From positions 620,353-684,352 of the forward strand of contig DAIDHW010000001.1 in NCBI GenBank assembly GCA_027451865.1: a DNA stretch of 64,000 nt, written 5' to 3'. Positions 48,477-62,709 of the stretch are shown here, one piece after another. The stretch comes from Leptolyngbyaceae cyanobacterium clean351. GTDB taxonomy: Bacteria; Cyanobacteriota; Cyanobacteriia; DAIDHW01. A program made the translations under genes and the position numbers. A model generated the notes under the pieces. It was not told the DNA's origin. It searched no databases and saw only the letters and a program-made list of their open reading frames with translations. How positions within the stretch are numbered: the stretch's first letter is position 1; each line of letters begins with the position of its first letter.

Positions 48477-51400
48477 ATGACTAGCGCAAGCGCTATTCGG
48501 GGTATTCCAGAGCAAGGCCAACTTGTGGCGGTCAGGGGCCAACGCTTCACGGTTACTGATATCAAAGCCTCCTCGTTGCCAGAGAGCTCCACTTTCACCA
48601 GCAGTCAAGCTGTCCAACATTTAGTTAGCCTGTCCTCAGTTGAAGATGATGCCCTGGGAGAAGAACTTCAAGTCGTATGGGAAATAGAACCGGGGGCAGT
48701 CATCTTTGAGCCCAGGGAACTGCCCTATCCTGACGGCTTCGATCCACCTGAACGTTTAGATGCTTTCCTCGATGCTGTCCGCTGGGGTGCGGCTTCCAGT
48801 GCTGATACCCGCAATATACAATCCCCTTTTCGCAGCGGCATTGATATTGAGGACTACCAACTTGACCCAGTTGTCAGGGCCATCCAGATGCCTCGGGTTA
48901 ATCTGCTGATTGCCGATGATGTCGGTCTTGGAAAAACGATCGAAGCAGGTTTAGTGGCCCAAGAGCTGATTTTGCGGCAGCGAGCCCGTCGCATTCTCAT
49001 CGTGTGCCCATCTTCTCTCCAGATTCAGTGGCATGATCAGATGCGCGATAAGTTCGGCCTTGATTTTCGGATTGTGAATAGTGACCTGTTGCGTCAACTG
49101 AGGCGCAGTCGAGGTCTTCACGTCAATCCCTGGACGCATTTTCCCCGCCTTATCACCTCGATCGACTTCCTGAAGCGCGACCGCCCCTTACGTCTGATGC
49201 GGGAGGTCCTGCCAGCCGAAGGCGAATCGGTTTACCCACGCCGATTTGACCTGATGATTGTTGATGAAGCGCATAATGTGGCTCCTGCTGGTGGTGGTAA
49301 TTATGCGGTTGACTCACAACGAACAGCAGCCCTTCGGTTGCTAGTACCCCACTTTGAACATAAGCTTTTTCTGACAGCAACTCCCCACAATGGCTACCCG
49401 GAAAGCTTTACCGCCCTCTTAGAACTGCTAGATTCCCAGCGTTTTGCCCGTGGTGTAGACCCCGATCGCCATCAGTTGCAGGTCGTCATGATCCGGCGGC
49501 TGAAGCAGGAACTCCCCCCCCGTTGGGACGGCAAACCCCGCTTCCCTAGGCGAGAGCTTGCAGCTTTGGAGGTGGATTACTCGGAAGAAGAACGCCAGGT
49601 TAACGATGCGCTGAAACGCTATACAGCCCTGCGATGCAATGGTGCGAAGGACGATAAGGTTGAACTAGCAGCCACAGAGTTTGTCCTCAAACTGCTTAAG
49701 AAGCGCCTGTTCTCATCCCCCCAGGCATTTTTGACTACGCTAGAGAAACACGAAAAGACAATTAAAGAAGGCAAAAAACGACCGGCCCGTCGCATCCCCA
49801 CGGTTGAAATCTTGCGCCGCCGATTCGAGCAGGTTGCAGAAGATAGTGATGATGATGACTTCATCGAGGAAACGACCAATGATGCGGTTTCTGAAACCTC
49901 ACTGCTGTTTCGAGAACTTAGCGCTGAAGAACAGGCACTCCTGACGTTCATGAAGCAGTGGGCTACACAAGCATCCTGCCGCCCTGACTCCAAGGCTCAA
50001 GAGCTGCTCCACTGGATTAATACCCACATCCGCCCCGGGGGGCAGTGGTCACATCAGCGAGTCATTATCTTCACCGAGTATCGGACCACTCAGAAATGGC
50101 TTCATGACCTCCTCGCTGGTCAAGGGCTCGCCCAAAATGAGCGCCTGATGACGCTCTACGGGGGCATGAATTCTGATGACCGGGAACAGGTTAAGGCAGC
50201 TTTCCAGGCAGGGCCTGAACTGTCGCATGTCCGTATCCTGCTGGCCACGGATGCAGCTTCAGAGGGGTTGGACTTACAGAATCACTGCTCCAACCTGATT
50301 CATTACGAGATTCCCTGGAATCCGAATCGCCTGGAACAGCGCAATGGTCGAATTGACCGGCATGGACAGCAGGCATCGGCGGTGATGATTTATCATTTTG
50401 TAGGTAAAGGCTACTCAAACTACAGTACAATTGGCACTCGTCCGGGTGATCTAGAAGGTGACCTGGAATTCTTGATGCGAGCGGCTTTGAAGGTCAATAC
50501 CATCCGTGAAGACCTCGGTAAAGTTGGCCCCGTGATCGCAAGTCAAGTTGAAGAGGCAATGCTCGGCAAACGAGTGACTCTCGATACTAGGCAGGCTGAG
50601 CAAGAAAGTGAACCGGTACGTCGCTTACTGAAATTTGAGCGTAAAGTCAAAGATCAGATTGAGCAGCTCAAAGAACAACTCCAGGAGACTCGCACCAATC
50701 TCAGACTCACACCAGAGCATATTGAATCGGTTGTTCGAGTGGGGCTAGAAGTTGCCCAGCAGCCGCCACTGCAAGCGGTATCAGGCTCAAAGGCGCTCTA
50801 CCATATTCCTCCCTTAGGGGGTAGTTGGTCAGCCTGTACCCAAGGATTAGCCCATCCCCACACTGGCGCAATCCGCCCGGTCACCTTTGATCCAGATGTG
50901 GCTCACGGGCGGGATGATATCGTTTTGGTTCACCTTAACCATCGACTCGTGCAGATGTGCCTGCGATTGCTGCGGGCAGAGGTCTGGGCGAGTGGCGTGC
51001 ATAAGTCGCTCCATCGAGTGGCTGCGCGTTTAGTCCCCAGTTCAGCCTTAGATTATCCAGCTGTGGTTGCCTTTGGCCGTTTGGTGGTGCTGGGGGGAGA
51101 CCAGCGGCGACTGCATGAGGAAGTTATTGCTGCGGGTGGCCGCATCAAGGAAGGTCGATTTAGACGATTCGATAGCCTGCTGGAAATGCGTCAGGTACTC
51201 AACGCTGTCCTGCCTGATCCCGTCCCCGCAGCAACCCGACAGCACCTAGTCAAGGAGTGGAATACCTATGCTGAACCCCTGATGCAAAGCTTAGATGTTC
51301 GTAGAGCAGAACGGGCCGCATCCCTGGAAAAGGCTTTGAGCGAACGCTGTGACAAGGAAGTAGCCGACATCACTGCCATCCTCAAGGAACTCAAGCAGAG

Positions 51401-51635
51401 CATCCTACAGGAATTAGAAGCAGGAAAAACCTCAACCGTTCAGTTATCACTCTTTAATCCCACCGAGCAAGACCAATTTGAACGCAATCGACACAGCTTA
51501 GAGGACCGACTCATCCAGATTCCCGATGAGATTGAACAGGAGTCAAAGCTCATTAGAGCTCGCTTTGCTAACCCAACCGCTCGTCTGTTTCCACTGGCGA
51601 TCACCTACCTTATCCCTAAGAAGTTTGCCCATTGA
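48477..51635 (+). CDS. drmD: DISARM SNF2-like helicase DrmD
   Basis: A 1052-residue SNF2/HepA-like translocase. It shows Walker A IADDVGLGKTIEAGL (~145-159), DEAH box VDEAHNVAP (~261-269), SLTATPHNG-type motif III (FLTATPHNGY), the helicase C domain (IIFTEYRTTQKWL; LLATDAASEGLDLQNHC) and motif VI QRNGRIDRHGQ (~621-631). DrmD is the marker protein of class 1 DISARM, which restricts phage DNA. It leads the operon, and the methyltransferase follows 12 bases later. Its DNA is less GC-rich than the core. Confidence 0.93.
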   Translation: MTSASAIRGIPEQGQLVAVRGQRFTVTDIKASSLPESSTFTSSQAVQHLVSLSSVEDDALGEELQVVWEIEPGAVIFEPRELPYPDGFDPPERLDAFLDAVRWGAASSADTRNIQSPFRSGIDIEDYQLDPVVRAIQMPRVNLLIADDVGLGKTIEAGLVAQELILRQRARRILIVCPSSLQIQWHDQMRDKFGLDFRIVNSDLLRQLRRSRGLHVNPWTHFPRLITSIDFLKRDRPLRLMREVLPAEGESVYPRRFDLMIVDEAHNVAPAGGGNYAVDSQRTAALRLLVPHFEHKLFLTATPHNGYPESFTALLELLDSQRFARGVDPDRHQLQVVMIRRLKQELPPRWDGKPRFPRRELAALEVDYSEEERQVNDALKRYTALRCNGAKDDKVELAATEFVLKLLKKRLFSSPQAFLTTLEKHEKTIKEGKKRPARRIPTVEILRRRFEQVAEDSDDDDFIEETTNDAVSETSLLFRELSAEEQALLTFMKQWATQASCRPDSKAQELLHWINTHIRPGGQWSHQRVIIFTEYRTTQKWLHDLLAGQGLAQNERLMTLYGGMNSDDREQVKAAFQAGPELSHVRILLATDAASEGLDLQNHCSNLIHYEIPWNPNRLEQRNGRIDRHGQQASAVMIYHFVGKGYSNYSTIGTRPGDLEGDLEFLMRAALKVNTIREDLGKVGPVIASQVEEAMLGKRVTLDTRQAEQESEPVRRLLKFERKVKDQIEQLKEQLQETRTNLRLTPEHIESVVRVGLEVAQQPPLQAVSGSKALYHIPPLGGSWSACTQGLAHPHTGAIRPVTFDPDVAHGRDDIVLVHLNHRLVQMCLRLLRAEVWASGVHKSLHRVAARLVPSSALDYPAVVAFGRLVVLGGDQRRLHEEVIAAGGRIKEGRFRRFDSLLEMRQVLNAVLPDPVPAATRQHLVKEWNTYAEPLMQSLDVRRAERAASLEKALSERCDKEVADITAILKELKQSILQELEAGKTSTVQLSLFNPTEQDQFERNRHSLEDRLIQIPDEIEQESKLIRARFANPTARLFPLAITYLIPKKFAH

Positions 51636-51647
51636 TAGAACCGCCGT

Positions 51648-54600
51648 ATGTCAATTGCCCGCCACCACGCTGAATGGTTGTCCCTAGTCGAAGCCTCGGG
51701 GCCATTCCTGAGCCTACAGGTGCTCATGGATGCCTTCCCGCAAGGCTTAGAAGCCCATGACTCGGAACAGTTTAAGGTGTTACGGCAAGCCTATGGGGAA
51801 TGGCTCGATGACCGTGAAACTCCAGGCATTCACCGAGCGTGGGTTGAGTGGGTACTCTCTGAAATCCTGGCATTTCCTGAAAAGGTATTGGTTGCCGGGC
51901 AAGAGATTCCGAGGAGCTTGCAAGTGACCATTACAGAGCACCAAGTCACGCTCCGTCCTGATTGGGTAGTCATCGATCCAACCACGAAGAAACCCCGATT
52001 ACTGATTCAAGTGATGCCGCCGGACCAAGGGTTAGAGAAAACCCTTAAGGATTCTCGCTGGAAGGCATCTCCGGCGACCGGCATGATGGAGCTACTCCAT
52101 GCCACAGATATCCGACTGGGGCTGTTGACGAATGGTGAGCAGTGGATGCTGGTCAACGCCCCTAGGGGTGAATCGACCGGTTACATCTCCTGGTACGGCA
52201 ACCTCTGGCTAGAGGAAAATCTAACCCTGCGGGCTTTTCGGACTCTATTGGGGGTTCAGCGGTTTTTCGGCGTCGAGGAAAACGAGACCCTAGAAGCACT
52301 CCTGGCTAAAAGCAAAGATGCCCAGCAGGAGGTGACCGACCAGTTAGGGCTCCAGGTGCGCAAAGCAGTGGAGGTTCTCGTCCAGGCACTAGACCGCATC
52401 GACCAGGACCGGCAACGCACATTGCTAGACGGCATTTCTGGGCCGGTGCTCTACCAAGCGGCGCTGACCGTCATGATGCGCCTGGTCTTCCTCTTTTCAG
52501 CGGAGGAGCAAGAACTGTTGTTATTGGGAGATCCTCTCTACGACCAGTTCTACGCCGTTTCAACCCTAAGGTCACAACTGCGAGAACAGGCCGATCAACA
52601 CGGTGAAGAACTCCTGGAGCGTCGCTACGATGCCTGGGCCAGGTTATTGGCCACCTTTCGCGCTGTGTTTGGCGGCATCCATCACGATGCGCTTCAACTT
52701 CCTGCCTATGGCGGTGACCTTTTCGATCCGGACCGGTTTCCCTTTCTAGAGGGCCGGTCGCTCAATACCCATTGGTTGGCAACGACTGCCGCCCCAATTC
52801 CCATCAATAACCGCACGGTACTGCATCTGTTAGAAGCGCTGCAAATCCTGCAGGTGAAGGTGCCTGGCGGTGGAGCAGAACCCCGTAAGCTATCCTTCCG
52901 GGCACTGGACATTGAACAGATCGGGCATGTGTATGAGGGTCTACTGGACCATACGGCAGCGCGAGCAACTACTACTATTCTGGGGCTAACGGGCACCAAG
53001 AACAAAGAACCGGAAGTTGCGCTGAATGACCTGGAGCAATTACAAGCCAAAGGGATAGACGCTTTGATCCGATTCCTGCATCAAGCAACGGGACGCTCTG
53101 AATCGGCTTTGCAAAAGGCACTCTCTGGCCCTCAGGGGGAGGAAAGGATTGACTGGGCATCGCGGGAAATGCAGCGTTTGCGGATTGCCTGCAACAATGA
53201 CCAAGGGTTGTTTGAGCGAGTGCTGCCCTGGGCTAAGCTGATTCGCCCCGATACGTTTGGCTACCCCACGGTGATTCCTGAGGGGAGTGTGTTTGTTACC
53301 CAGGGGTCAGACCGACGAGAGACGGGAACCCATTACACACCCCGCACTCTGACTGAGGAAATTGTGAAGTACACGCTAGAACCGCTCGTTTACACTGGCG
53401 TTGCCGAGGGAAAACCAAAGCAAGAGTGGCAACTGCGGTCGGCCGCAGAACTGTTACAGCTCAAGGTCTGCGACATGGCGATGGGCAGTGGTGCCTTTTT
53501 GGTGCAAGTGTGTCGGTACCTATCAGAACGGTTAGTGGAAGCCTGGGAGGAAACGGAGCGGCAACATCCCGGGCAAGTCGTAGTGGCTCCTGAGGGGACC
53601 TTGTCCGCTTTTCGACCAGAGGAATGCCCCATCCCTAAGGAGGCGGATGAACGGTTGGTGGTGGCACGGCGCATCATAGCCGATCGCTGTCTTTACGGTG
53701 TAGACAAAAACCCGTTAGCGGTAGAAATGGCGAAGCTATCGCTGTGGCTGATTACGCTGGCGAAGGGGCGACCGTTTACGTTTGTGGATCACGCGCTGAA
53801 GTGGGGCGATTCACTGTTAGGGATTACCCGACCAGAGCAAATCGAGTTTCTGAAGCTGAATCCTGAAAAAAAAGCAGTGCAACTGAGAACGGTGGCCGAC
53901 CGCTGGAAACCCTTTGTGCAACGGGCGATCGCCAAACGACAAGAACTAGAAAACTTTAGTGTATCGGATATTACCGATATTCAGAAAAAAGAACAGCTAA
54001 ACCGGGAGGCAGAAGCAGCCATTACCCATGTGCGGTATGTGGGTGATTTTTTGGTGGCAGAGGCGTTGGCGCAGGTGGGCAAAACTTCTGACCTGACGGA
54101 TAAGGAAATTCAGGTGTTGGCGGAGGAGGTGATTGAGGCATTGGATGAAGCCGATGCCGAGAAGCGCAACCGGGAGATTGCGGCGATTCTGGCAAACACA
54201 GAACGGATGATGAATCGGGGTAATCCAGAGAACCAACCGCCCCGCAAACCGTTTCATTGGCTGTTGGAATTCCCGGAGGTGTTTTTGGATATGCCCCCTC
54301 ATCCCCTAACCCCTTCTCCCACGCGGGGAGAAGGGGGACAAGAGGCTGTTTCTCCCCTGGCCCGTTCTGGGCGAGGGGTTGGGGGTCTTGGCTTTGATGC
54401 CATCGTTGGCAATCCACCGTTTCAAGGCGGACAAAAAATCACAGGAACACTCGGCACAGACTACCGGAATTTCCTGGTGGACTACCTGGCAAATGGTCAA
54501 CGAGGCAGCGCGGATCTTTGTGCATACTTCTTCCTGCGAGCCAATCAACTCACCAACAATCTTGGGGGATATGGTTTAGTTGCCACCAACACCATTGCCC

Positions 54601-56000
54601 AAGGGGATACCCGTGAAGTAGGGCTAGACCAATTAGTGGCAAATGGTTGTGTGATTCATCGGGCTGTACCGAGTCGTCCCTGGATTGGGGCAGCAAACTT
54701 AGAAGTGGCTTATCTTTGGCTGTGTAAACATCAATGGCAAAGTGAATACGTCTTAGACGAAAAGGTTGTTACCGGAATCACGCCATTTTTAACCCCACCG
54801 GGAAAATTTGTCGGCAAACCGTATCAGCTAATCGCAAATCAAAACAAATCATTTCAAGGTTCAATTGTTTTAGGCATGGGATTTGTTCTCACACCTGACG
54901 AGGCTCAGGCACTGATCGATAAAGATCCCAGAAATAAAGATGTCTTGTTTCCTTACCTGAATGGCGAAGATTTGAACTCACGCCCGGATCAATCTCCCAG
55001 CCGATGGGTGATTAACTTCCAGGATTGGGCGTTAGACGCAGACCATGATGACCCGAAGAAACCGAAAGGTGCGCCCTACGCGGCTGATTATCCTGACTGT
55101 TTGGCGATCGTGCGGGAGAAGGTGAAGCCTGAACGCCAACGCAGAAAAGAGAATGGTGAATATGCTTTGAGAAAACCGTTACCAGAAAGATGGTGGATTT
55201 ATGCGGAAAAACGTCCAGCACTCTATAGGGCGATCGAGGGGTGCGATCGGGTTTTAGTTATTGCAGCAACTAGCCGAACATTAGCGTTTGGATTCATACC
55301 ATCCAATATTATTTTTTCTAATGCAACAGTGGTTCTATCTTTTGATAAGGCTGATGCTTTTGCAGTTTTGCAAAGTATATTCCATGAATCTTGGTCGAGA
55401 GAATATGCTTCTTCTATGAAAGGGGATTTGCGATACACTCCTTCCGATTGCTTTGAAACCTTCCCCTTCCCCGAAAACACCGACACCCTAGAAACCATCA
55501 GCGAGCGCTACTACACCCATCGCCAGGCCATCATGCAAACCCGCCAGGAAGGACTCACCAAAACCTACAACCGCTTCCATGACCCCAGCTGCACCGACCC
55601 CGACATCCAAACCCTGCGCGACCTCCACATCCAAATGGACATCGCCGTCGCCGCCGCCTACGGCTGGCACGATTTGATTGGCCCTCATCCCCTAACCCAA
55701 GGAGAAGGGGAACAAGAGGATCGGCTCCCCAGAAGTGCCGGGGGTGTAGACGCGACAGTAGATCCCCGCAGGGTGGGCCTCCACCACGGCTTCCACGAAA
55801 CCAAACAGGGCCTCCGCTTCACCATCAGCGAAACCGCTCGCCGGGAAGTGCTCGATCGGCTGCTTGAGCTAAACCATCAACGCTACGCCCAAGAAGTTGC
55901 CCAGGGTTTACATGATCAGAAAAAGGCAAAAGGGAAAACCACCCAAAAGCAAAAAGTTACTGGAGACGACCCGCAGGACGAGCAAATCAGCCTGTTCTAG
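51648..56000 (+). CDS. drmMI: DISARM class 1 adenine methyltransferase DrmMI
   Basis: A 1450-residue N6-adenine methyltransferase of the Eco57I/PglX-like type. It has SAM-binding motif I CDMAMGSGAF (~607-616) and catalytic NPPF (residues ~922-925, in FDAIVGNPPFQGG). A target-recognition-like region follows, and the Lys-rich tail ends DEQISLF. In class 1 DISARM it marks host DNA as self. Two Pro/Gly-rich stretches, at ~884-915 and ~1345-1380, are encoded by palindromic repeat DNA that has invaded the gene in frame; the first lies just before NPPF. Confidence 0.93.
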   Translation: MSIARHHAEWLSLVEASGPFLSLQVLMDAFPQGLEAHDSEQFKVLRQAYGEWLDDRETPGIHRAWVEWVLSEILAFPEKVLVAGQEIPRSLQVTITEHQVTLRPDWVVIDPTTKKPRLLIQVMPPDQGLEKTLKDSRWKASPATGMMELLHATDIRLGLLTNGEQWMLVNAPRGESTGYISWYGNLWLEENLTLRAFRTLLGVQRFFGVEENETLEALLAKSKDAQQEVTDQLGLQVRKAVEVLVQALDRIDQDRQRTLLDGISGPVLYQAALTVMMRLVFLFSAEEQELLLLGDPLYDQFYAVSTLRSQLREQADQHGEELLERRYDAWARLLATFRAVFGGIHHDALQLPAYGGDLFDPDRFPFLEGRSLNTHWLATTAAPIPINNRTVLHLLEALQILQVKVPGGGAEPRKLSFRALDIEQIGHVYEGLLDHTAARATTTILGLTGTKNKEPEVALNDLEQLQAKGIDALIRFLHQATGRSESALQKALSGPQGEERIDWASREMQRLRIACNNDQGLFERVLPWAKLIRPDTFGYPTVIPEGSVFVTQGSDRRETGTHYTPRTLTEEIVKYTLEPLVYTGVAEGKPKQEWQLRSAAELLQLKVCDMAMGSGAFLVQVCRYLSERLVEAWEETERQHPGQVVVAPEGTLSAFRPEECPIPKEADERLVVARRIIADRCLYGVDKNPLAVEMAKLSLWLITLAKGRPFTFVDHALKWGDSLLGITRPEQIEFLKLNPEKKAVQLRTVADRWKPFVQRAIAKRQELENFSVSDITDIQKKEQLNREAEAAITHVRYVGDFLVAEALAQVGKTSDLTDKEIQVLAEEVIEALDEADAEKRNREIAAILANTERMMNRGNPENQPPRKPFHWLLEFPEVFLDMPPHPLTPSPTRGEGGQEAVSPLARSGRGVGGLGFDAIVGNPPFQGGQKITGTLGTDYRNFLVDYLANGQRGSADLCAYFFLRANQLTNNLGGYGLVATNTIAQGDTREVGLDQLVANGCVIHRAVPSRPWIGAANLEVAYLWLCKHQWQSEYVLDEKVVTGITPFLTPPGKFVGKPYQLIANQNKSFQGSIVLGMGFVLTPDEAQALIDKDPRNKDVLFPYLNGEDLNSRPDQSPSRWVINFQDWALDADHDDPKKPKGAPYAADYPDCLAIVREKVKPERQRRKENGEYALRKPLPERWWIYAEKRPALYRAIEGCDRVLVIAATSRTLAFGFIPSNIIFSNATVVLSFDKADAFAVLQSIFHESWSREYASSMKGDLRYTPSDCFETFPFPENTDTLETISERYYTHRQAIMQTRQEGLTKTYNRFHDPSCTDPDIQTLRDLHIQMDIAVAAAYGWHDLIGPHPLTQGEGEQEDRLPRSAGGVDATVDPRRVGLHHGFHETKQGLRFTISETARREVLDRLLELNHQRYAQEVAQGLHDQKKAKGKTTQKQKVTGDDPQDEQISLF
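54296..54392. repeat. Palindromic repeat inserted in frame in drmMI (copy 1)
   Basis: The block starts CCCTCATCCCCTAACCC (54296-54312). It contains a perfect 11-bp hairpin CCCCTTCTCCC / GGGAGAAGGGG (54310-54320 and 54326-54336) and an outer GGGGTTGGGGG arm. It encodes ~32 low-complexity residues (PHPLTPSPTRGEGGQ...RGVGGLG) between FPEVFLDM and FDAIVGNPPF. It resembles intergenic cyanobacterial repeats. Confidence 0.8.
55682..55790. repeat. Palindromic repeat inserted in frame in drmMI (copy 2)
   Basis: This copy shares CCCTCATCCCCTAACCC with copy 1, then GGAGAAGGGG and ACAAGAGG, with the central arm deleted. It encodes PHPLTQGEGEQEDRLPRSAG followed by a Gly/Val-rich stretch, and the reading frame stays open to the Lys-rich tail. 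The right boundary is approximate. Confidence 0.7.
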
Positions 56001-56081: not shown

Positions 56082-56321
56082 GTGCGATCGCTAGCTCCCT
56101 CTCAGCAGGAAGCCGTGCTTGACTTTGCGCAATCGCCTTCTAGCCACGCTCAACAAACCCCACCGCCCCTCACACTTTCCCTCCAAGAAATTGCAAAGCT
56201 ACCAGTTCATGACCGCAATCAACTCCTCGCACCCTATGTTGCTGTAATGGCAGAAGACTTCCAGACCGATCCAGAGCTCACTGAATTTTCAGTACTGGAT
56301 ACAGAAGATTGGGATGATTAA
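56082..56321 (+). CDS. Putative antitoxin (DUF2281-like)
   Basis: A 79-residue acidic protein from a GTG start, containing LAPSQQEAVLDFAQS, LSLQEIAKLPVHDRNQLLAP and an acidic end FSVLDTEDWDD. The first element resembles DUF2281-type antitoxins. Placement 2 bases before a PemK-like toxin gene is the main evidence. The N-terminus is uncertain, because no ATG and no clear ribosome site are present. Confidence 0.6.
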   Translation: MRSLAPSQQEAVLDFAQSPSSHAQQTPPPLTLSLQEIAKLPVHDRNQLLAPYVAVMAEDFQTDPELTEFSVLDTEDWDD

Positions 56322-56323
56322 TT

Positions 56324-56683
56324 TTGTCTACTCCCAAGCGAGGTGAAATCTGGCTGGTTGATCTCAACCCCACAAGGGGGCAAGAAATTCAGAAAACTTG
56401 TCCTGTTGTTGTCATTAGCTCGGACGTTTATCAGCCAATTGCCCTCCGAATCGTCATCCCAATTACAACCTGGCAAGGGAAATTTATTGCTCGTCCCTTG
56501 ATGGTGAAAATTCCTCCGACCTCTGAAAATGGGCTAGACCGAGACTCGGCTGGTAATATCTTGCAGGTTCGCAGCTTATCGACTGAGCGCTTCGTCAAAC
56601 GCTTAGGGCAAATTGAGCCAGATGCTATGATCGAAATCCTTGCCGGTTTGGTGATCTATGTTGATTATGAAGGAACTCCCTAA
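56324..56683 (+). CDS. PemK/MazF-family toxin
   Basis: A 119-residue protein from a TTG start. KRGEIWLVDLNPTRGQEIQK is the canonical start of MazF/PemK mRNA interferases. CPVVVISSDVY, RIVIPITTW and QVRSLSTERFVKRLG complete the fold, including the Arg and Ser/Thr expected for RNA cleavage. It sits directly behind drmMI with its antitoxin, on the DISARM strand. Confidence 0.88.
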   Translation: MSTPKRGEIWLVDLNPTRGQEIQKTCPVVVISSDVYQPIALRIVIPITTWQGKFIARPLMVKIPPTSENGLDRDSAGNILQVRSLSTERFVKRLGQIEPDAMIEILAGLVIYVDYEGTP

Positions 56684-56907: not shown

Positions 56908-57086
56908 GTGAGTCTGGATTGCCTGCTAGAACTACACTAGCAGCGCTACGCCGCCGAGGTAGCTCAGGGGTTGCATGACAAAAAGAAGGAAAAAGTACAA
57001 AGGCAAAAGGGGAAAAATCAGCCCAGCTAGATCCAGTCGGCTATACCGTCCAGGGCACTCTGTTTGGCGACCCCAACCCCACCTAG
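56908..57086 (+). pseudogene. Decayed tail of a second methyltransferase
   Basis: The frame reads SLDCLLELH, a TAG, then QRYAAEVAQGLHDKKKEK and a Lys/Gln tail. It is homologous to the DrmMI end LDRLLELNHQRYAQEVAQGL. After a shift it reads DPVGYTVQGTLFGDPNPT, like the C-terminus of many Eco57I-type enzymes. Codons differ widely from drmMI although the protein is similar, so it is an old paralogue fragment and not a fresh duplication. Confidence 0.75.
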
Positions 57087-57148
57087 GGCGAACTATTTTG
57101 AGTGGTTAACCCACAGATTGCCTCACTACTAGAACCACTGATCTACCG

Positions 57149-58060
57149 ATGCCCAACACCTTTTCGATTATTGATGTGCCGTTAGATGCCGCGCAAGCTC
57201 AAGAAGCGATGGGTACCAAATTTAAGTTTTGGTACACCCACCCCACCCTGGGTGAATGCCTCTTCAAAGCAGCCCGCCCCAACACCGGGGAAGATTGGTC
57301 AGAAAAAATCGCCGCTGAACTCTGCCAACTCCTCAATCTGCCCCATGCCACCTACGAACTCGCAACTTGGAACCAGCAACCTGGCATCATTTCACCCAAT
57401 CTTTTACCATCCAATACAGTACTACTGCACGGAAACGACATTCTCGCGGGTCTGGTTTCTAGCTATCCCAGATCCGAAGGCTACAAACTCTCTCAACATA
57501 CCCTTACCCTCGTTCTGACTGCGATGAAGCAACCGGGTTTACAGCTTCCCCCAAACTGGCAATCTCCTCCCGGCATTAATAGCGCTGTTTCGACCTTCGT
57601 TGGCTATCTGCTACTCGATGCTTGGATTGGTAATGGCGATCGCCATCATGAAAACTGGGGGTTTATGGTTCCTCAACAGGGAGGAATTCCCAAACTGGCT
57701 CCTACCTACGATCACGCGTCCTGCCTGGGGCGAGAATTATACGACCAAAAGCGGCAACAGTATCTTGATCAGAACACTGTTCAAAGCTATGCTGCCAAGT
57801 CTCGATCTGCCTTTTATCAACAAGAAAGTGATCGCAAACCAATGCTCACCTTCGATGTCTTCCAGGCTGTCGCCTGTGAGTATAAGCGATCGGCAACGCT
57901 GTGGCTCGATCAACTGGCTCAAATCTCCCCTCCCGAGATCCAGGATTTGCTCAATCGCATCCCCTCCGCCCGAATTTCTCAGTCTGCTCTAGAATTTGCC
58001 TACAAAATGATCGACTTTAATAGAGATAGACTATTACGTTTACGAGAGGATCTGACATGA
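57149..58060 (+). CDS. HipA-like serine/threonine kinase (HipA_C domain only)
   Basis: This 303-residue protein has the PI3/4-kinase-like fold of HipA toxins. The ATP-site lysine is in LGECLFKAARP (K40), the catalytic loop is IGNGDRHHENWGF (D164, N169) and the metal-binding Asp is in APTYDHASCLG (D188). It lacks the N-terminal HipA_N subdomain, which appears in the next gene instead. The stop overlaps the next start as ATGA. Its position inside the DISARM operon suggests a defence effector or regulator. The kinase target is unknown. Confidence 0.82.
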   Translation: MPNTFSIIDVPLDAAQAQEAMGTKFKFWYTHPTLGECLFKAARPNTGEDWSEKIAAELCQLLNLPHATYELATWNQQPGIISPNLLPSNTVLLHGNDILAGLVSSYPRSEGYKLSQHTLTLVLTAMKQPGLQLPPNWQSPPGINSAVSTFVGYLLLDAWIGNGDRHHENWGFMVPQQGGIPKLAPTYDHASCLGRELYDQKRQQYLDQNTVQSYAAKSRSAFYQQESDRKPMLTFDVFQAVACEYKRSATLWLDQLAQISPPEIQDLLNRIPSARISQSALEFAYKMIDFNRDRLLRLREDLT

Positions 58061-58815
58061 AAACCTTGTTCTTAGCTTGGCAAGATCCCAATTCCCGCAC
58101 CTGGTTCCCCATAGGCAAGCTAACCCAGGAGGAAGGACTGTACCACTTCACCTATCTCCAAGGCGCATTGACAGCTCAATCAGAAGCAGGTTTCTCTCCG
58201 ATCGTCTCCTTCCCAGACTTTCACCATCGCTACAGCTCGGCTGCTCTCTTTCCCCTCTTTGCCAATCGGCTACTCCGGCGATCGCGCCCTGAATACTCGG
58301 ATTTTCTCCAATGGCTGAACCTGCCGGAGGAGGCTAACGATCCCATTGCCCTCTTGTCTCGTAGTGGTGGTAGACGCAAAACCGATAGTTTTGAAGTGTT
58401 TCCTTGTCCAGAAAAAGATGAACAGGGCAACTATCATATTCACTTTTTTTCCCACGGACTGCGCCACTTTCCAGAAGAAACCCAGCACTATGTTCAAGAT
58501 CTTCCGCCGGGAACTCCCTTGTGGATTACCCATGATGTGCAAAATCCAGTAGATTCCCGTGCGCTAATTCTGAGAACCGAAGACCACCATTTTGTAGGCT
58601 ACTGTCCTCGTTATCTCACTCAAGATTTCTTCGAGCTAATTTGCCGACATCCTCAGAACGTCAGCGTTAAAGTTGAACGGGTCAATCCCGCCCCTACTCC
58701 ATTACAACTTCGCTTATTGTGTAACCTGACTGCTACCTGGCCCGATGGATTTGTACCTTTCTCAGGGCCAATGTATGAAGCGATCGCTCAAAACCTAGTA
58801 AAACTTCCAATCTAA
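58057..58815 (+). CDS. HipA N-terminal-like plus HIRAN domain protein
   Basis: This is a 252-residue protein. The first ~110 residues (FPIGKLTQEEGLYHFTYLQG; YSSAALFPLFANRLLRRSRP) resemble the HipA_N subdomain. The second half (GTPLWITHDVQNPVDSRALI then HHFVGYCPRYLTQDF) matches the HIRAN fold, known to bind DNA ends in DNA-repair helicases. It overlaps the kinase by ATGA and ends 3 bases before drmA. Kinase and HIRAN parts probably form one complex, with HIRAN perhaps sensing phage DNA. Confidence 0.75.
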   Translation: MKTLFLAWQDPNSRTWFPIGKLTQEEGLYHFTYLQGALTAQSEAGFSPIVSFPDFHHRYSSAALFPLFANRLLRRSRPEYSDFLQWLNLPEEANDPIALLSRSGGRRKTDSFEVFPCPEKDEQGNYHIHFFSHGLRHFPEETQHYVQDLPPGTPLWITHDVQNPVDSRALILRTEDHHFVGYCPRYLTQDFFELICRHPQNVSVKVERVNPAPTPLQLRLLCNLTATWPDGFVPFSGPMYEAIAQNLVKLPI

Positions 58816-58818
58816 ATT

Positions 58819-61800
58819 ATGGAACTGATCCACCTCCCCCCCTTGCTCCCTGGTACCCTCGACCTCAATGCCATTAACCAAAAGCTCCAGGCGGGAACGG
58901 CTCGGTTAGATTGGGGTGCGGTGGTCTCAGCACCCGAGGCAGTACTGGAGCAGTTGCTCAACGGCATTGGCCCAAACCATCTCGGTCTAGGGCTAGAACA
59001 AGGTGGGGCTGCCGAGCATGTTATTGATGCGATCGCTCGTTATTACCAAGGCCGCCCTCAACCCCCTACCCCTATTTGGGGACAGGAGGAGCCTGCTGGG
59101 GGTGAGGGTATCCCCGAAGACCACAGCCCCGCTATTTTGGGACAGGAAGAGGAGGACCCAGCCCCCGTCCGCCCCGGGAGAGAACCTGTTGGGGGTGGGG
59201 GTATCCTTAAGGACTACAGCCCCGCACAGCTGCGGGCAGAGTTGGAAGCCGCCATCATCAAGGACCTGTATGGGCCGGCGGGTCGGGAGGATGAAGAAGT
59301 TGAAGAATCCCGCGTCACAGAACGCTACCTAGTGGGGGTGCTAGCTCCTCAAATTCGCAATCAGAAGGGCGATGGGGAACCTGAGCAACACGATGGCATT
59401 GCGACCGCCGACAAGGAAAGTCCGGAAGAAGGCAGCACCGAAAGCAACGTCCCCTCTACCGATAGCATGTTCCCGTCTTCCCTGGGGATGACCTTCTGTG
59501 TCAGCCAAGAAGCGAAGGCCCTAGAAATTACGGCTTCCTGGGGTAGATACGAACGGCAAGCAAGTGAAATCAGCTTTACCGAACAAGGCAATCCAAAAAC
59601 GGTTTGGAAGCGGTATCCCCTGACTGGCACCGTCATCCAAGCACTTTCGCCAGAGGGGGATATTGACATTAGCCCCGTGCCTGATGAAGCTCCAGCCGTC
59701 CTACTGCGAGGACGTATCCGGCAACTTCCTGACAAGGATTGGATCGTTACCCTCTTCCTGGTCAATGGTCAAACCGAGCCGAACCAGTCTAAGGATACCG
59801 CCTGGCTCTTCCAGCCTGAAGTTGTTGTTCGTTCAGCAGATGCGGGGGCTGCCGCTATTTTTTTGAGAAAGCCGCTGGGAGAGTACTCTGGTGCCCTCGA
59901 TCCGGTGATTGAAGCCGAAAATCAGGCGATGGCCATGCTCTATCGCCACCATGTGGAGTTTGCCGTCGGCCATGGTGTTAGCGTTCATGCCACAGTCGCG
60001 CCTCAGAATCCCACCCGCGCAATCTGCCTCTCCACCAGCGTCATCCCGACCTACGAGGTTCCGGCTACAAAGCCACCGACGGTGCAGGAAATTCCTGAAC
60101 TAGAAGGGCTGGTTTTAGACATGAAAACCCTTGCACAAGTCACAGGTACGGAGCTACGGTCCGCTCTCCAACCCATCATTACCGCCTACGCCACCTGGAT
60201 TGCTCAGCAGCAAAACCGCATTGACGATCCTGATGAGGGACTCGCACCCTTGCGGGATGCCGCCGACAAAGCCCTTACCCACTGCCGCGAAGTCCTCAGC
60301 CGCATTGAAGAGGGCATAACCACCCTGGAAACAAATCCCCAAGCGGCCGCAGCCTTCCGCTTTATGAACCGGGCGATGTACCTGCAACGAATCCATACCC
60401 TCTATGCGGAACGTCGCCGTCGCAGCGAAACCCTGACCCTCGATGATATCGACGTACCCAAAAACCGCAGCTGGTATCCGTTTCAGCTTGCGTTTATTTT
60501 GCTCAACATCCCTAGCACCTCAGATCTCCACCACAGCGCCCGTTCTCACCCGACCGATGCTGTAGCTGATCTGCTTTGGTTTCCCACAGGGGGGGGTAAG
60601 ACGGAAGCCTATTTAGGTTTAACTGCTTTCACGATCAGCCTGCGTCGTCTCCAAGGTACGATCGCGGGTCGAGACGGCGAGCACGGGGTAGCTGTGCTCA
60701 TGCGCTATACCCTGCGGCTGCTTACTCTCCAGCAGTTTCAACGCGCCACAGCCCTCATTTGTGCTTGTGAAACCATTCGCCGCGAAAACGAATCTCAGTG
60801 GGGTAAAGAACCATTCCGCATTGGCCTATGGGTCGGGCTCAAAAATACACCCAATAAAACCGCAGACAGCGATGAAGCCATCAAGCAACATCGAGAATCT
60901 CGACCTCGGGGGAGTGGTTCACCTCATCAATTAACCAACTGCCCCTGGTGTGGCTCCAAAATTGAACCGGGAAGACATATTCGAGTCGATCGCTTTGAGA
61001 AGGGAACGGGGCGAACCCTCATTAAGTGCGGGGACAATCTCGGGAGCTGCGCCTTTTCTAAAGGGGAAGGACTGCCTGTGGTCGTGGTTGATGAGGAAAT
61101 TTATCGGCGTCTGCCCACCCTACTCATCGCCACCGTTGATAAATTCGCCCAAATGCCCTGGAAAGGCGAAGTGCAGATGCTGTTTGGTCAGGTCAATGGT
61201 TACTGCGAACGGCATGGGTTTCGCTCGTCAGACCTGGAAGATAAGGACCAGCATAATCGGTCTGGGAACTTACCTGCTGCCAAAACGATTCCCCACAGAA
61301 AGCTCCGTCCACCCGATCTGATCATCCAGGATGAGTTACACCTGATCAGTGGTCCTCTCGGCACCCTCGTGGGTCTGTATGAAACCGCTGTTGATCGGCT
61401 CTGTACCTGGGAAGTAGACGGTCAATCTATCAGACCAAAAGTCATCGCCTCCACCGCGACGATCCGTCAGGCGCAGGCGCAGGTTCACAATCTCTTCCTC
61501 AGAAAACTCAGCGTCTTTCCACCCCAGGGCCTCGACATCAGCGATAACTTTTTCTCGCGGCAGCGAGACACCAACCCGGCATCAGACCGCTATAGTCCGG
61601 GCCGGAGATACCTTGGCATCTGTGCCCCTGGTCGTCGGTTAAAGGCCACCATGATTCGGGTATACCTGGCAGCGCTGTCATCCTCACAGGCACTGTATGA
61701 AAAATATGGCAAAGACGCTGACCCCTGGATGACGTTGGTTGGTTACTTCAATTCCCTGCGTGAGCTGGGGGGCACTCGGCGGCTGGTCGATGATGACATT

Positions 61801-62709
61801 CGCACTCGCCTTGCCAGGATGGATGAACGCGGTCTAGCAACACGTCGTCTGCGAGCGATCGATGAGCTGACTTCCCGTAAAGACTCCACAGAAATCCCAG
61901 GGATTCTCGACCGCCTAGAAACCCCCTTTGACCCAGAGTTGCTGGCGGAAAATGAGGCCAGGCGAAAAGCCGGTCAAAAAGTAGATAGACCCGATCCGCT
62001 CGATGTCATCCTGGCAACTAACATGATCTCAGTGGGAGTCGATGTCCGGCGCCTCGGCATCATGGTGGCCTGCGGACAACCGAAAAATACGGCTGAGTAT
62101 ATCCAGGCCACCTCCCGGGTTGGCCGGACCTATCCCGGCCTCGTGATCACGGTCTACAACTGGGCGCGGCCGCGGGATCTTTCCCACTTCGAACGCTTTG
62201 AGCACTATCACGCCACGTTCTATCAGAACGTTGAGGCGCTGTCCGTTACCCCGTTTGCTCCTGGTGCCCTTTATCGAGGCCTCAGTGCTGTCCTGGCATC
62301 ATTAATTCGTCTGTCCGGCGAAGAATTCAACGGCAACGATAAAGCGGGAGCCATTGAACGCAATCATCCCTACGTACGAGCCGCTGTGGATGCGATCGTT
62401 CACAGAGCCGAACTTGTTGGTAATGCTCAGACAGGGCAACGCATTCGTGAAGAACTAGAGGTCAAGCTCGACCGCTGGCTGGCCCGCTCTCAGAAGCTAG
62501 TCGGGGGAGCCCAGCTCAAGTATCAAATCAAATCCAGAGATGGCACCTCTGTTAACCTGCTCAGTTCAGCGGGGAAAGCAACCTGGGATGATTTCACCTG
62601 TCTCAACTCACTGCGTAACGTTGAACCCACCGTTAACCTGGTACTGACCGATCAGCCTCCAGATGACGACTTTTCCCGCATACCACAGCCTTATCTTGAA
62701 ACTACATGA
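58819..62709 (+). CDS. drmA: DISARM helicase DrmA
   Basis: This 1296-residue superfamily 2-like helicase is a core DISARM component. It has Walker A WFPTGGGKTEAYLGL (K594, T595), the DExH-like IIQDELHLISG (~835-845), a zinc-ribbon-like CPWCGSKIEPG...CGDNLGSCAF and helicase C motifs ATNMISVGVDVRRLG and ATSRVGRTYPG. Residues ~79-135 are low-complexity Pro/Gly/Glu sequence encoded by repeat DNA. An eight-G run (60589-60596) lies in the Walker A codons. drmB overlaps its end. Confidence 0.94.
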   Translation: MELIHLPPLLPGTLDLNAINQKLQAGTARLDWGAVVSAPEAVLEQLLNGIGPNHLGLGLEQGGAAEHVIDAIARYYQGRPQPPTPIWGQEEPAGGEGIPEDHSPAILGQEEEDPAPVRPGREPVGGGGILKDYSPAQLRAELEAAIIKDLYGPAGREDEEVEESRVTERYLVGVLAPQIRNQKGDGEPEQHDGIATADKESPEEGSTESNVPSTDSMFPSSLGMTFCVSQEAKALEITASWGRYERQASEISFTEQGNPKTVWKRYPLTGTVIQALSPEGDIDISPVPDEAPAVLLRGRIRQLPDKDWIVTLFLVNGQTEPNQSKDTAWLFQPEVVVRSADAGAAAIFLRKPLGEYSGALDPVIEAENQAMAMLYRHHVEFAVGHGVSVHATVAPQNPTRAICLSTSVIPTYEVPATKPPTVQEIPELEGLVLDMKTLAQVTGTELRSALQPIITAYATWIAQQQNRIDDPDEGLAPLRDAADKALTHCREVLSRIEEGITTLETNPQAAAAFRFMNRAMYLQRIHTLYAERRRRSETLTLDDIDVPKNRSWYPFQLAFILLNIPSTSDLHHSARSHPTDAVADLLWFPTGGGKTEAYLGLTAFTISLRRLQGTIAGRDGEHGVAVLMRYTLRLLTLQQFQRATALICACETIRRENESQWGKEPFRIGLWVGLKNTPNKTADSDEAIKQHRESRPRGSGSPHQLTNCPWCGSKIEPGRHIRVDRFEKGTGRTLIKCGDNLGSCAFSKGEGLPVVVVDEEIYRRLPTLLIATVDKFAQMPWKGEVQMLFGQVNGYCERHGFRSSDLEDKDQHNRSGNLPAAKTIPHRKLRPPDLIIQDELHLISGPLGTLVGLYETAVDRLCTWEVDGQSIRPKVIASTATIRQAQAQVHNLFLRKLSVFPPQGLDISDNFFSRQRDTNPASDRYSPGRRYLGICAPGRRLKATMIRVYLAALSSSQALYEKYGKDADPWMTLVGYFNSLRELGGTRRLVDDDIRTRLARMDERGLATRRLRAIDELTSRKDSTEIPGILDRLETPFDPELLAENEARRKAGQKVDRPDPLDVILATNMISVGVDVRRLGIMVACGQPKNTAEYIQATSRVGRTYPGLVITVYNWARPRDLSHFERFEHYHATFYQNVEALSVTPFAPGALYRGLSAVLASLIRLSGEEFNGNDKAGAIERNHPYVRAAVDAIVHRAELVGNAQTGQRIREELEVKLDRWLARSQKLVGGAQLKYQIKSRDGTSVNLLSSAGKATWDDFTCLNSLRNVEPTVNLVLTDQPPDDDFSRIPQPYLETT
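59055..59220. repeat. GC-rich repeat inserted in frame in drmA (copy 3)
   Basis: It begins CCCTCAACCCCCTACCCC, close to the blocks in drmMI, followed by TTTGGGGACAGGAGG. It contains an internal direct repeat: GGGTGAGGGTATCCC then ACCACAGCCCCGC, against GGGTGGGGGTATCC then ACTACAGCCCCGC. It encodes two imperfect copies of a GGxGI-x-x-D-x-SPA element. The frame is preserved. Confidence 0.7.

What the first reader, a model, noticed from the sequence alone, without database searches (positions are those of the whole stretch)
57149..58815. A split HipA kinase/HIRAN pair welded into a class 1 DISARM operon
Between drmMI and drmA lie a HipA_C-only kinase and a HipA_N+HIRAN protein. Junctions are ATGA (kinase/HIRAN), a 3-base gap (HIRAN/drmA) and ATGA (drmA/drmB), so all four should be translated from one message. 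Class 1 DISARM is usually drmD-drmMI-drmA-drmB-drmC. A HipA-type toxin kinase with a DNA-end-binding HIRAN domain could be a back-up that stops growth when DISARM fails, or a sensor that licenses it. All active-site residues of the kinase look intact.
Basis: partly seen in the sequence, partly recalled or inferred. Interest (0 to 1): 0.88.

Follow-up and report, generated by a model that had tools for sequence, protein, structure and literature searches.

The report
Kinase-HIRAN toxin pair inside DISARM operon
A known but untested kinase/DNA-end-binder pair (hipIN), which behaves in evolution like a toxin and its antidote, sits inside a cyanobacterial DISARM anti-phage operon, in a gap where related operons carry other, interchangeable toxin or defence genes.

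Summary
The genes and the tight junctions are real. The kinase (57149-58060) and the HipS-like+HIRAN protein (58057-58815) are a known but experimentally untested pair: hipIN of Gerdes 2021, PADLOC PDC-M03. They overlap by ATGA, lie 3 bp before drmA, and drmA overlaps drmB. The 'one welded operon' picture is too simple: drmMI is separated from hipI by 1,148 bp holding mazEF, an inverted-repeat element and a decayed second drmMI 3' end, and drmC was not found in the genome. Elsewhere hipIN is mostly free-standing or phage-borne. Of 80 close relatives from a scan of about 85,000 species genomes, one (Nodosilinea LEGE 07298) lies between drmMI and drmA; in a separate Cyanobacteria sample, 0 of 28 neighbourhoods had DISARM. 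The drmMI-drmA gap is a cargo slot in cyanobacterial DISARM (10 of 11 loci hold at least 0.8 kb: VapBC, MazEF, XisHI, ApeA-like, PIN, short pAgo); two strains of one Planktothrix species carry different cargo. Kinase genes are often lost while HipN persists (10 cases), never the reverse (0 of 19), as expected for toxin and antitoxin. Best reading: an autonomous toxin-antitoxin/abortive-infection module co-expressed with drmAB as replaceable cargo, not a core DISARM part.

The parts
48477..51635 (+). drmD, SNF2-like helicase of class 1 DISARM (1052 aa)
   Evidence: NCBIfam DISARM_DrmD 1379 bits, PADLOC DrmD
51648..56000 (+). drmMI, MmeI/Eco57I-type adenine methyltransferase (1450 aa); its present C-terminus (...DEQISLF) differs from that of its closest ortholog in the sample
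   Evidence: PADLOC DrmMI 1859 bits; comparison with L067
56082..56321 (+). mazE-like antitoxin, 79 aa from a GTG start, shorter at the N-terminus than relatives (99-110 aa)
56324..56683 (+). mazF/PemK toxin (119 aa)
   Evidence: Pfam PF02452 91.6 bits
56687..56896 (.). 210-bp element with 19-bp, 95% complementary terminal inverted repeats (MITE-like); the only copy in this genome
56914..57101 (+). decayed second copy of the drmMI 3' end, with an in-frame stop; ends in a sequence 80% identical (51 bp) to the true 3' end of drmMI in G085 and 68% identical (202 bp) to drmMI of Nodosilinea LEGE 07298
57149..58060 (+). hipI: HipA-family kinase core lacking the HipA N-subdomain (303 aa); PDC-M03A; catalytic motifs intact
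   Evidence: PADLOC PDC-M03A 381.6 bits, alignment, AF2 model and CtkA/HipT fold match
58057..58815 (+). hipN: N-terminal HipS-like domain plus C-terminal HIRAN domain (252 aa); PDC-M03B; putative antitoxin and DNA-end sensor
   Evidence: Pfam HIRAN 32.2 bits, Couple_hipA 19.8 bits; PDC-M03B 324 bits; fold matches to 7vkb_B (kinase-complex partner chain) and HLTF HIRAN-DNA
58819..62709 (+). drmA, DISARM helicase (1296 aa)
   Evidence: NCBIfam DISARM_DrmAS 1424.7 bits
62706..64000 (+). drmB, 619 aa; continues past the window to C1:684917
   Evidence: assigned by conserved position after drmA and by homologs annotated DUF1998 at that position on plasmids; not scanned against family models itself

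Best explanation
A complete hipIN (PDC-M03) module sits as interchangeable cargo in the drmMI-drmA slot of a cyanobacterial class 1-type DISARM operon, and is most likely co-transcribed with drmA and drmB. It most likely works as a toxin-antitoxin/abortive-infection unit. HipN holds HipI inactive through its HipS-like domain. The HIRAN domain senses free or single-stranded DNA ends, as made by phage entry, replication or DISARM/restriction cutting, and this frees the kinase. The kinase then phosphorylates a translation-related target, as HipA and HipT do, and arrests growth. It would act as a second line behind DISARM, and losing the operon would be costly (addiction). Shown: gene anatomy, predicted folds, intact catalytic motifs, asymmetric loss of the kinase gene, phage-borne copies, recurrence in the slot of another genome, and variable slot content. 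Inferred: antitoxin action, DNA-end gating, kinase target, transcription unit, and anti-phage effect.
For: Family: PDC-M03A/B; matches the hipIN description in PMC8262856. Folds: HipI to CtkA/HipT/HipA; HipN to a kinase-complex partner chain (7vkb_B) and HLTF HIRAN. TA signature: in 386 sampled Cyanobacteria all 19 intact HipI genes have HipN next door, while 10 HipN loci have no intact HipI (sign test p=0.002); in the species-genome scan 33 of 76 usable loci have a broken or missing kinase beside full-length HipN. Mobility: pair on Vibrio tailless temperate phages next to an integrase, on 35 viral contigs with both genes present, and HipN on plasmids. Slot: drmMI-drmA gaps of 0.8-14 kb in 10 of 11 loci, against drmA-drmB gaps mostly under 100 bp; contents include TA, ApeA-like, XisHI, PIN, GIY-YIG and short pAgo genes. 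hipIN in this slot also in Nodosilinea LEGE 07298. Packing: -4, 3, -4 bp.
Against: No experiment on any HipN was found in the searchable literature, so antitoxin action and DNA binding are untested. The HipA_C and Couple_hipA Pfam scores are below gathering thresholds. The promoter scan found no sigma-70-type site on the + strand, so the start of the message is unknown. The missing drmC leaves DISARM activity in this genome uncertain. The toxin-loss asymmetry fits any toxic kinase, whatever its trigger. The loss counts treat related genomes as independent.
Confidence: 0.62

Rival explanations
1. Chance passenger: hipIN landed here as a selfish addiction module and contributes nothing to DISARM or phage defence; it is kept only because losing HipN while HipI remains is toxic.
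For: Free-standing in nearly all relatives; 0 of 28 other sampled neighbourhoods have DISARM genes. Kinase frequently decays. The gap also collects mazEF, a MITE-like element and relics.
Against: The drmMI-drmA slot holds mostly toxin and defence genes rather than random genes; hipIN recurs in this slot in Nodosilinea; the 3-bp gap to drmA ties its expression to drmAB; both genes are intact here.
Confidence: 0.25
2. Integral component: HipIN is a DISARM regulator, with HIRAN sensing DNA ends and HipI phosphorylating a Drm protein to license or restrain DrmAB.
For: Tight packing with drmA; DrmAB itself is gated by DNA with 5' overhangs (PMC9142583) and HIRAN domains bind DNA ends (PMC8262856), so they could read the same substrate.
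Against: Most DISARM operons lack it and hold unrelated cargo in the same place; compact operons in Deinococcus and actinobacteria have nothing there; hipIN is common without DISARM.
Confidence: 0.08
3. The pair is a dead or decaying relic, like the eroded mazE and the drmMI relic next to it.
For: Relics and an apparently shortened mazE lie directly upstream; many relatives have broken HipI; drmC not found.
Against: Both ORFs are full length with all conserved motifs and confidently modelled folds.
Confidence: 0.05

Closest known systems
hipIN modules (HipI kinase + HipN HipS-HIRAN putative antitoxin), Gerdes, Baerentsen & Brodersen 2021 (PMC8262856)
   Same: Small kinase core without N-subdomain-1, followed by a HipS-like+HIRAN protein; kinase first, partner second
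   Different: DISARM is not mentioned in that paper; here the pair is packed 3 bp before drmA
PADLOC PDC-M03 (phage defence candidate; PDC-M03A/B)
   Same: Both proteins match the models strongly (381.6 and 324 bits)
   Different: PADLOC lists it as a system of its own; here it is nested in another system
HipBST (HipT kinase, HipS antitoxin)
   Same: Kinase split from its N-terminal subdomain, which acts as antitoxin; HipI and HipN models match HipT-type kinases and a kinase-complex partner chain (7vkb)
   Different: No HipB adjacent; the partner carries a HIRAN domain; gene order kinase then partner
Class 1 DISARM (drmD-drmMI-drmA-drmB-drmC)
   Same: drmD, drmMI, drmA, drmB in order
   Different: drmC not found; mazEF and hipIN lie between drmMI and drmA
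ShdA homologs embedded in DISARM-like operons of Pseudomonas (PMC10270631)
   Same: Precedent for a separate defence gene inside DISARM operons
   Different: Different protein (RmuC domain), different host lineage
diDNase-HIRAN-HipA clusters of Gram-positive bacteria (PMC11706625)
   Same: HipA-domain and HIRAN-domain genes side by side, predicted to be anti-phage
   Different: Linked to a dinucleotide nuclease, not to DISARM

Membership tests
hipIN / PDC-M03 | Small HipA-type kinase core with catalytic motifs, lacking HipA N-subdomain-1 | tested here: met
   PDC-M03A 381.6 bits; motifs in alignment; CtkA/HipT folds
hipIN / PDC-M03 | Adjacent downstream gene with HipS-like + HIRAN domains | tested here: met
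   PDC-M03B 324 bits; HIRAN PF08797 above cut-off; kinase-complex partner 7vkb_B and HLTF HIRAN folds
hipIN / PDC-M03 | HipN neutralises HipI; HIRAN binds DNA | not testable with these tools
   Needs expression and binding assays; predicted only (PMC8262856)
Toxin-antitoxin module | Toxin dispensable, antitoxin not: loss is one-sided | tested here: met
   19 of 19 intact HipI have HipN; 10 HipN without intact HipI; 33 of 76 loci with broken or absent HipI
Toxin-antitoxin module | Toxicity of HipI and rescue by HipN | not testable with these tools
Class 1 DISARM | DrmD, DrmMI, DrmA, DrmB present in order | tested here: met
   DrmB assigned by position and homology to plasmid DUF1998 genes
Class 1 DISARM | DrmC (PLD nuclease) present (required by PADLOC DISARM type I, PMC9252829) | tested here: not met
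   No match in the 98.8%-complete genome with the DrmC model that best fits the Nodosilinea homologs
drmMI-drmA cargo slot (descriptive class proposed here) | Gap between drmMI and drmA filled with variable toxin/defence genes | tested here: met
   10 of 11 cyanobacterial loci with at least 0.8 kb, varied contents

The most novel reading that the evidence does not exclude
The drmMI-drmA slot makes DISARM a platform that co-expresses interchangeable growth-arrest effectors with the DNA-end-reading DrmAB complex. hipIN would be the case in which effector and sensor read the same infection signal (DNA ends), so that DISARM processing of phage DNA triggers the HipI kinase when clearance fails.
Probability: 0.15. 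Interest if true: 0.8.

Novelty: new variant of a known kind. Interest (0 to 1): 0.5.

Why it matters
It replaces a one-off curiosity with a testable rule: cyanobacterial DISARM operons keep a specific site, just before drmA, for swapping toxin, abortive-infection and nested defence modules. It also gives comparative evidence that the untested hipIN family behaves as toxin and antitoxin. If slot cargo is co-expressed with DrmAB, DISARM strains could combine DNA targeting with conditional dormancy, as is known for other layered defences, and swapping the cargo becomes a clean experiment.

Tried and rejected
An NCBIfam accession was not accepted by the genome search; PADLOC models were used instead. 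'PDC-M03' appears in no searchable paper. The Ofir 2018 DISARM paper is not held. A co-inherited, single-origin hipIN-DISARM unit was considered: HipN from the window and from Nodosilinea fall in one 7-member clade (support 100), but Nodosilinea groups with free-standing copies (support 90 and 94), so a single origin in DISARM is not supported. The MITE-like element as a mobile carrier of the pair was dropped: it is single-copy and lies outside the pair. The order-level genome search held only the window's own species. hipIN as a regular partner of the downstream Hma genes was considered, because one plasmid carries both (L050), but only 1 of 28 neighbourhoods shows it.

Full report
OBSERVATION. 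The ORFs are as described. hipI (57149-58060, 303 aa) and hipN (58057-58815, 252 aa) overlap by ATGA; hipN ends 3 bp before drmA (58819-62709), and drmA overlaps drmB by ATGA. DrmD (48477-51635), DrmMI (51648-56000) and DrmA are strong PADLOC hits, and DrmD and DrmA are strong NCBIfam hits too. Pfam alone is weak for the pair (HipA_C 26.5 bits against a cut-off of 30.5; Couple_hipA 19.8 against 22.5; HIRAN 32.2, above cut-off). PADLOC PDC-M03A/B models match at 381.6 and 324 bits. AF2 models are confident (mean pLDDT 89.0 and 88.5). The kinase matches H. pylori CtkA, HipA and Legionella HipT; HipN matches 7vkb_B (the small partner chain of a bacterial kinase complex) with one part and the human HLTF HIRAN domain, including DNA-bound forms, with another. 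Conserved kinase residues K40, D164, N169 and D188 are present.

WHAT WAS MISSED. Between drmMI and hipI lie 1,148 bp: mazE with a short N-terminus (GTG start at 56082), mazF (56324-56683; Pfam PemK 91.6 bits), a 210-bp element with 19-bp inverted repeats (single copy in the genome), and a decayed drmMI 3' end at 56914-57101. The last 51 bp of that relic are 80% identical to the true drmMI 3' end of the closest DISARM relative in the sample (G085/L067), and 202 bp are 68% identical to drmMI of Nodosilinea LEGE 07298. So the ancestral drmMI probably ended about 47 bp before hipI, and mazEF came in with a second drmMI 3' end. The same theme appears in Nodosilinea LEGE 07088 (L085), where mazEF is flanked by drmMI-tail pieces. 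Insertion at the drmMI 3' end with duplication of that end would explain how cargo enters without breaking drmMI; this is inference. drmC, present after drmB in both Nodosilinea genomes, is not found in this genome.

THE PAIR IS A KNOWN FAMILY. Gerdes et al. 2021 (PMC8262856) described hipIN: a small HipI kinase followed by HipN, a HipS-like domain fused to HIRAN, proposed as antitoxin and possibly binding ssDNA. HIRAN-HipA neighbours have also been reported next to dinucleotide nucleases and predicted to be anti-phage (PMC11706625). I found no experiment on HipN.

TOXIN-ANTITOXIN SIGNATURE. 386 cyanobacterial genomes were searched independently with HipN and HipI models. All 19 intact HipI genes have HipN adjacent; 10 full-length or nearly full-length HipN loci lack an intact HipI (positions compared from the two tables and; sign test p=0.002). 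In 80 loci from a scan of about 85,000 species genomes, HipI is intact in 43, degraded in 20 and absent in 13, with 4 at contig edges. Related genomes are not independent, so these are patterns rather than exact probabilities. On 35 viral contigs both genes are present every time, and Vibrio tailless temperate phages carry the pair beside an integrase.

IS IT TIED TO DISARM? Of 28 other HipN neighbourhoods from the sample, none has DISARM genes within about 10 kb or the contig end. Of the 80 species-genome loci, one does: Nodosilinea LEGE 07298, where a 14.4-kb insert between drmMI and drmA holds an HNH-type protein with a short pAgo, hipIN, a second DrmD-type helicase, a GNAT, an RNase III-like protein and a UvrD-helicase fusion, followed on another contig by the rest of drmA, drmB and drmC (GNAT and RNase III names are from sequence inspection). 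A second, Nodosilinea LEGE 07088, has hipIN next to mazEF and a drmMI-tail relic, but its drmA is on another contig. HipN from the window and these two fall in one clade of seven (support 100) that also holds four free-standing copies; Nodosilinea groups with two of those rather than with the window. So entry into DISARM happened at least twice, or once with later escapes.

THE SLOT. In 11 cyanobacterial loci with drmMI and drmA together, counting the window and Nodosilinea LEGE 07298, the gap is 118, 812, 1049, 1510, 1702, 1777, 2747, 2818, 4048, 5510 and 14391 bp, while drmA-drmB gaps are mostly below 100 bp. Contents include VapBC plus MazEF (L067), XisHI (L066), an ApeA-like HEPN protein (L072, PDC-S58/ApeA), and HigA or PIN modules with IS200-type genes (L079, L081). 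Small gene names here are partly from sequence inspection. On plasmids, two Planktothrix agardhii strains carry different cargo in this gap (a GIY-YIG nuclease gene; a small gene plus PIN), Oscillatoria carries XisHI, and Microvirga carries an ATPase and a methyltransferase. Deinococcus, Nocardia and Rhodococcus operons are compact. ShdA homologs inside DISARM-like operons of Pseudomonas are a published precedent for extra defence genes in DISARM (PMC10270631).

MECHANISM. Shown: anatomy, predicted folds, motif conservation, one-sided loss, mobility and slot variability. Inferred: HipN inhibits HipI through its HipS-like domain (by analogy with HipS/HipT); HIRAN binding to DNA ends relieves inhibition; HipI phosphorylates a translation factor and arrests growth; hipI-hipN-drmA-drmB form one message, since no + strand promoter or terminator was seen by a crude scan and 3 bp leave no room before drmA. 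DrmAB is itself activated by DNA with 5' overhangs (PMC9142583), so both could read infection-derived ends, but no evidence links them physically.

VERDICT. Partly confirmed: a known TA-like defence candidate in a DISARM cargo slot. The rule about the slot and the toxin-loss asymmetry are the useful new points.

Noticed in passing
L003:1010-12528 (G000:C1:685309-696827), downstream of drmB: A full Hma-type defence system (HmaA helicase, HmaB methylase, HmaC ATPase), with a PIN gene and a Uma2-like gene interspersed, follows the DISARM genes directly.
   Followed up: partly
window 54297-54390 and 55683-55760 (inside drmMI): Two in-frame stretches beginning PHPLT that look inserted into drmMI, one just before the NPPF methylase motif; only the second was compared with an ortholog (L067), which lacks it. 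DrmA has a similar-looking repetitive stretch near residues 88-150.
   Followed up: partly
G000:C3:93518-96562 (L082): A second, divergent DrmA-DrmB pair (about 35% identical to the first) in the same genome, with no drmD or drmMI match within the 20-kb stretch.
   Followed up: no
L085:775-1740: In Nodosilinea LEGE 07088 mazEF is flanked by pieces of the drmMI 3' end, as in the window; suggests cargo insertion with long target duplication at the drmMI 3' end.
   Followed up: partly
L099, L101, L117, L121: In-frame internal deletions of the HipI kinase core in several cyanobacteria, leaving short ORFs next to intact HipN.
   Followed up: no
L178:7018-8732 (Vibrio phage PQ189286): hipIN pair with ATGA overlap beside the integrase gene of a small tailless temperate Vibrio phage.
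   Followed up: partly
L170:2723-5494: An HNH-containing APAZ-like protein and a short pAgo nested inside a DISARM operon of Nodosilinea LEGE 07298.
   Followed up: partly
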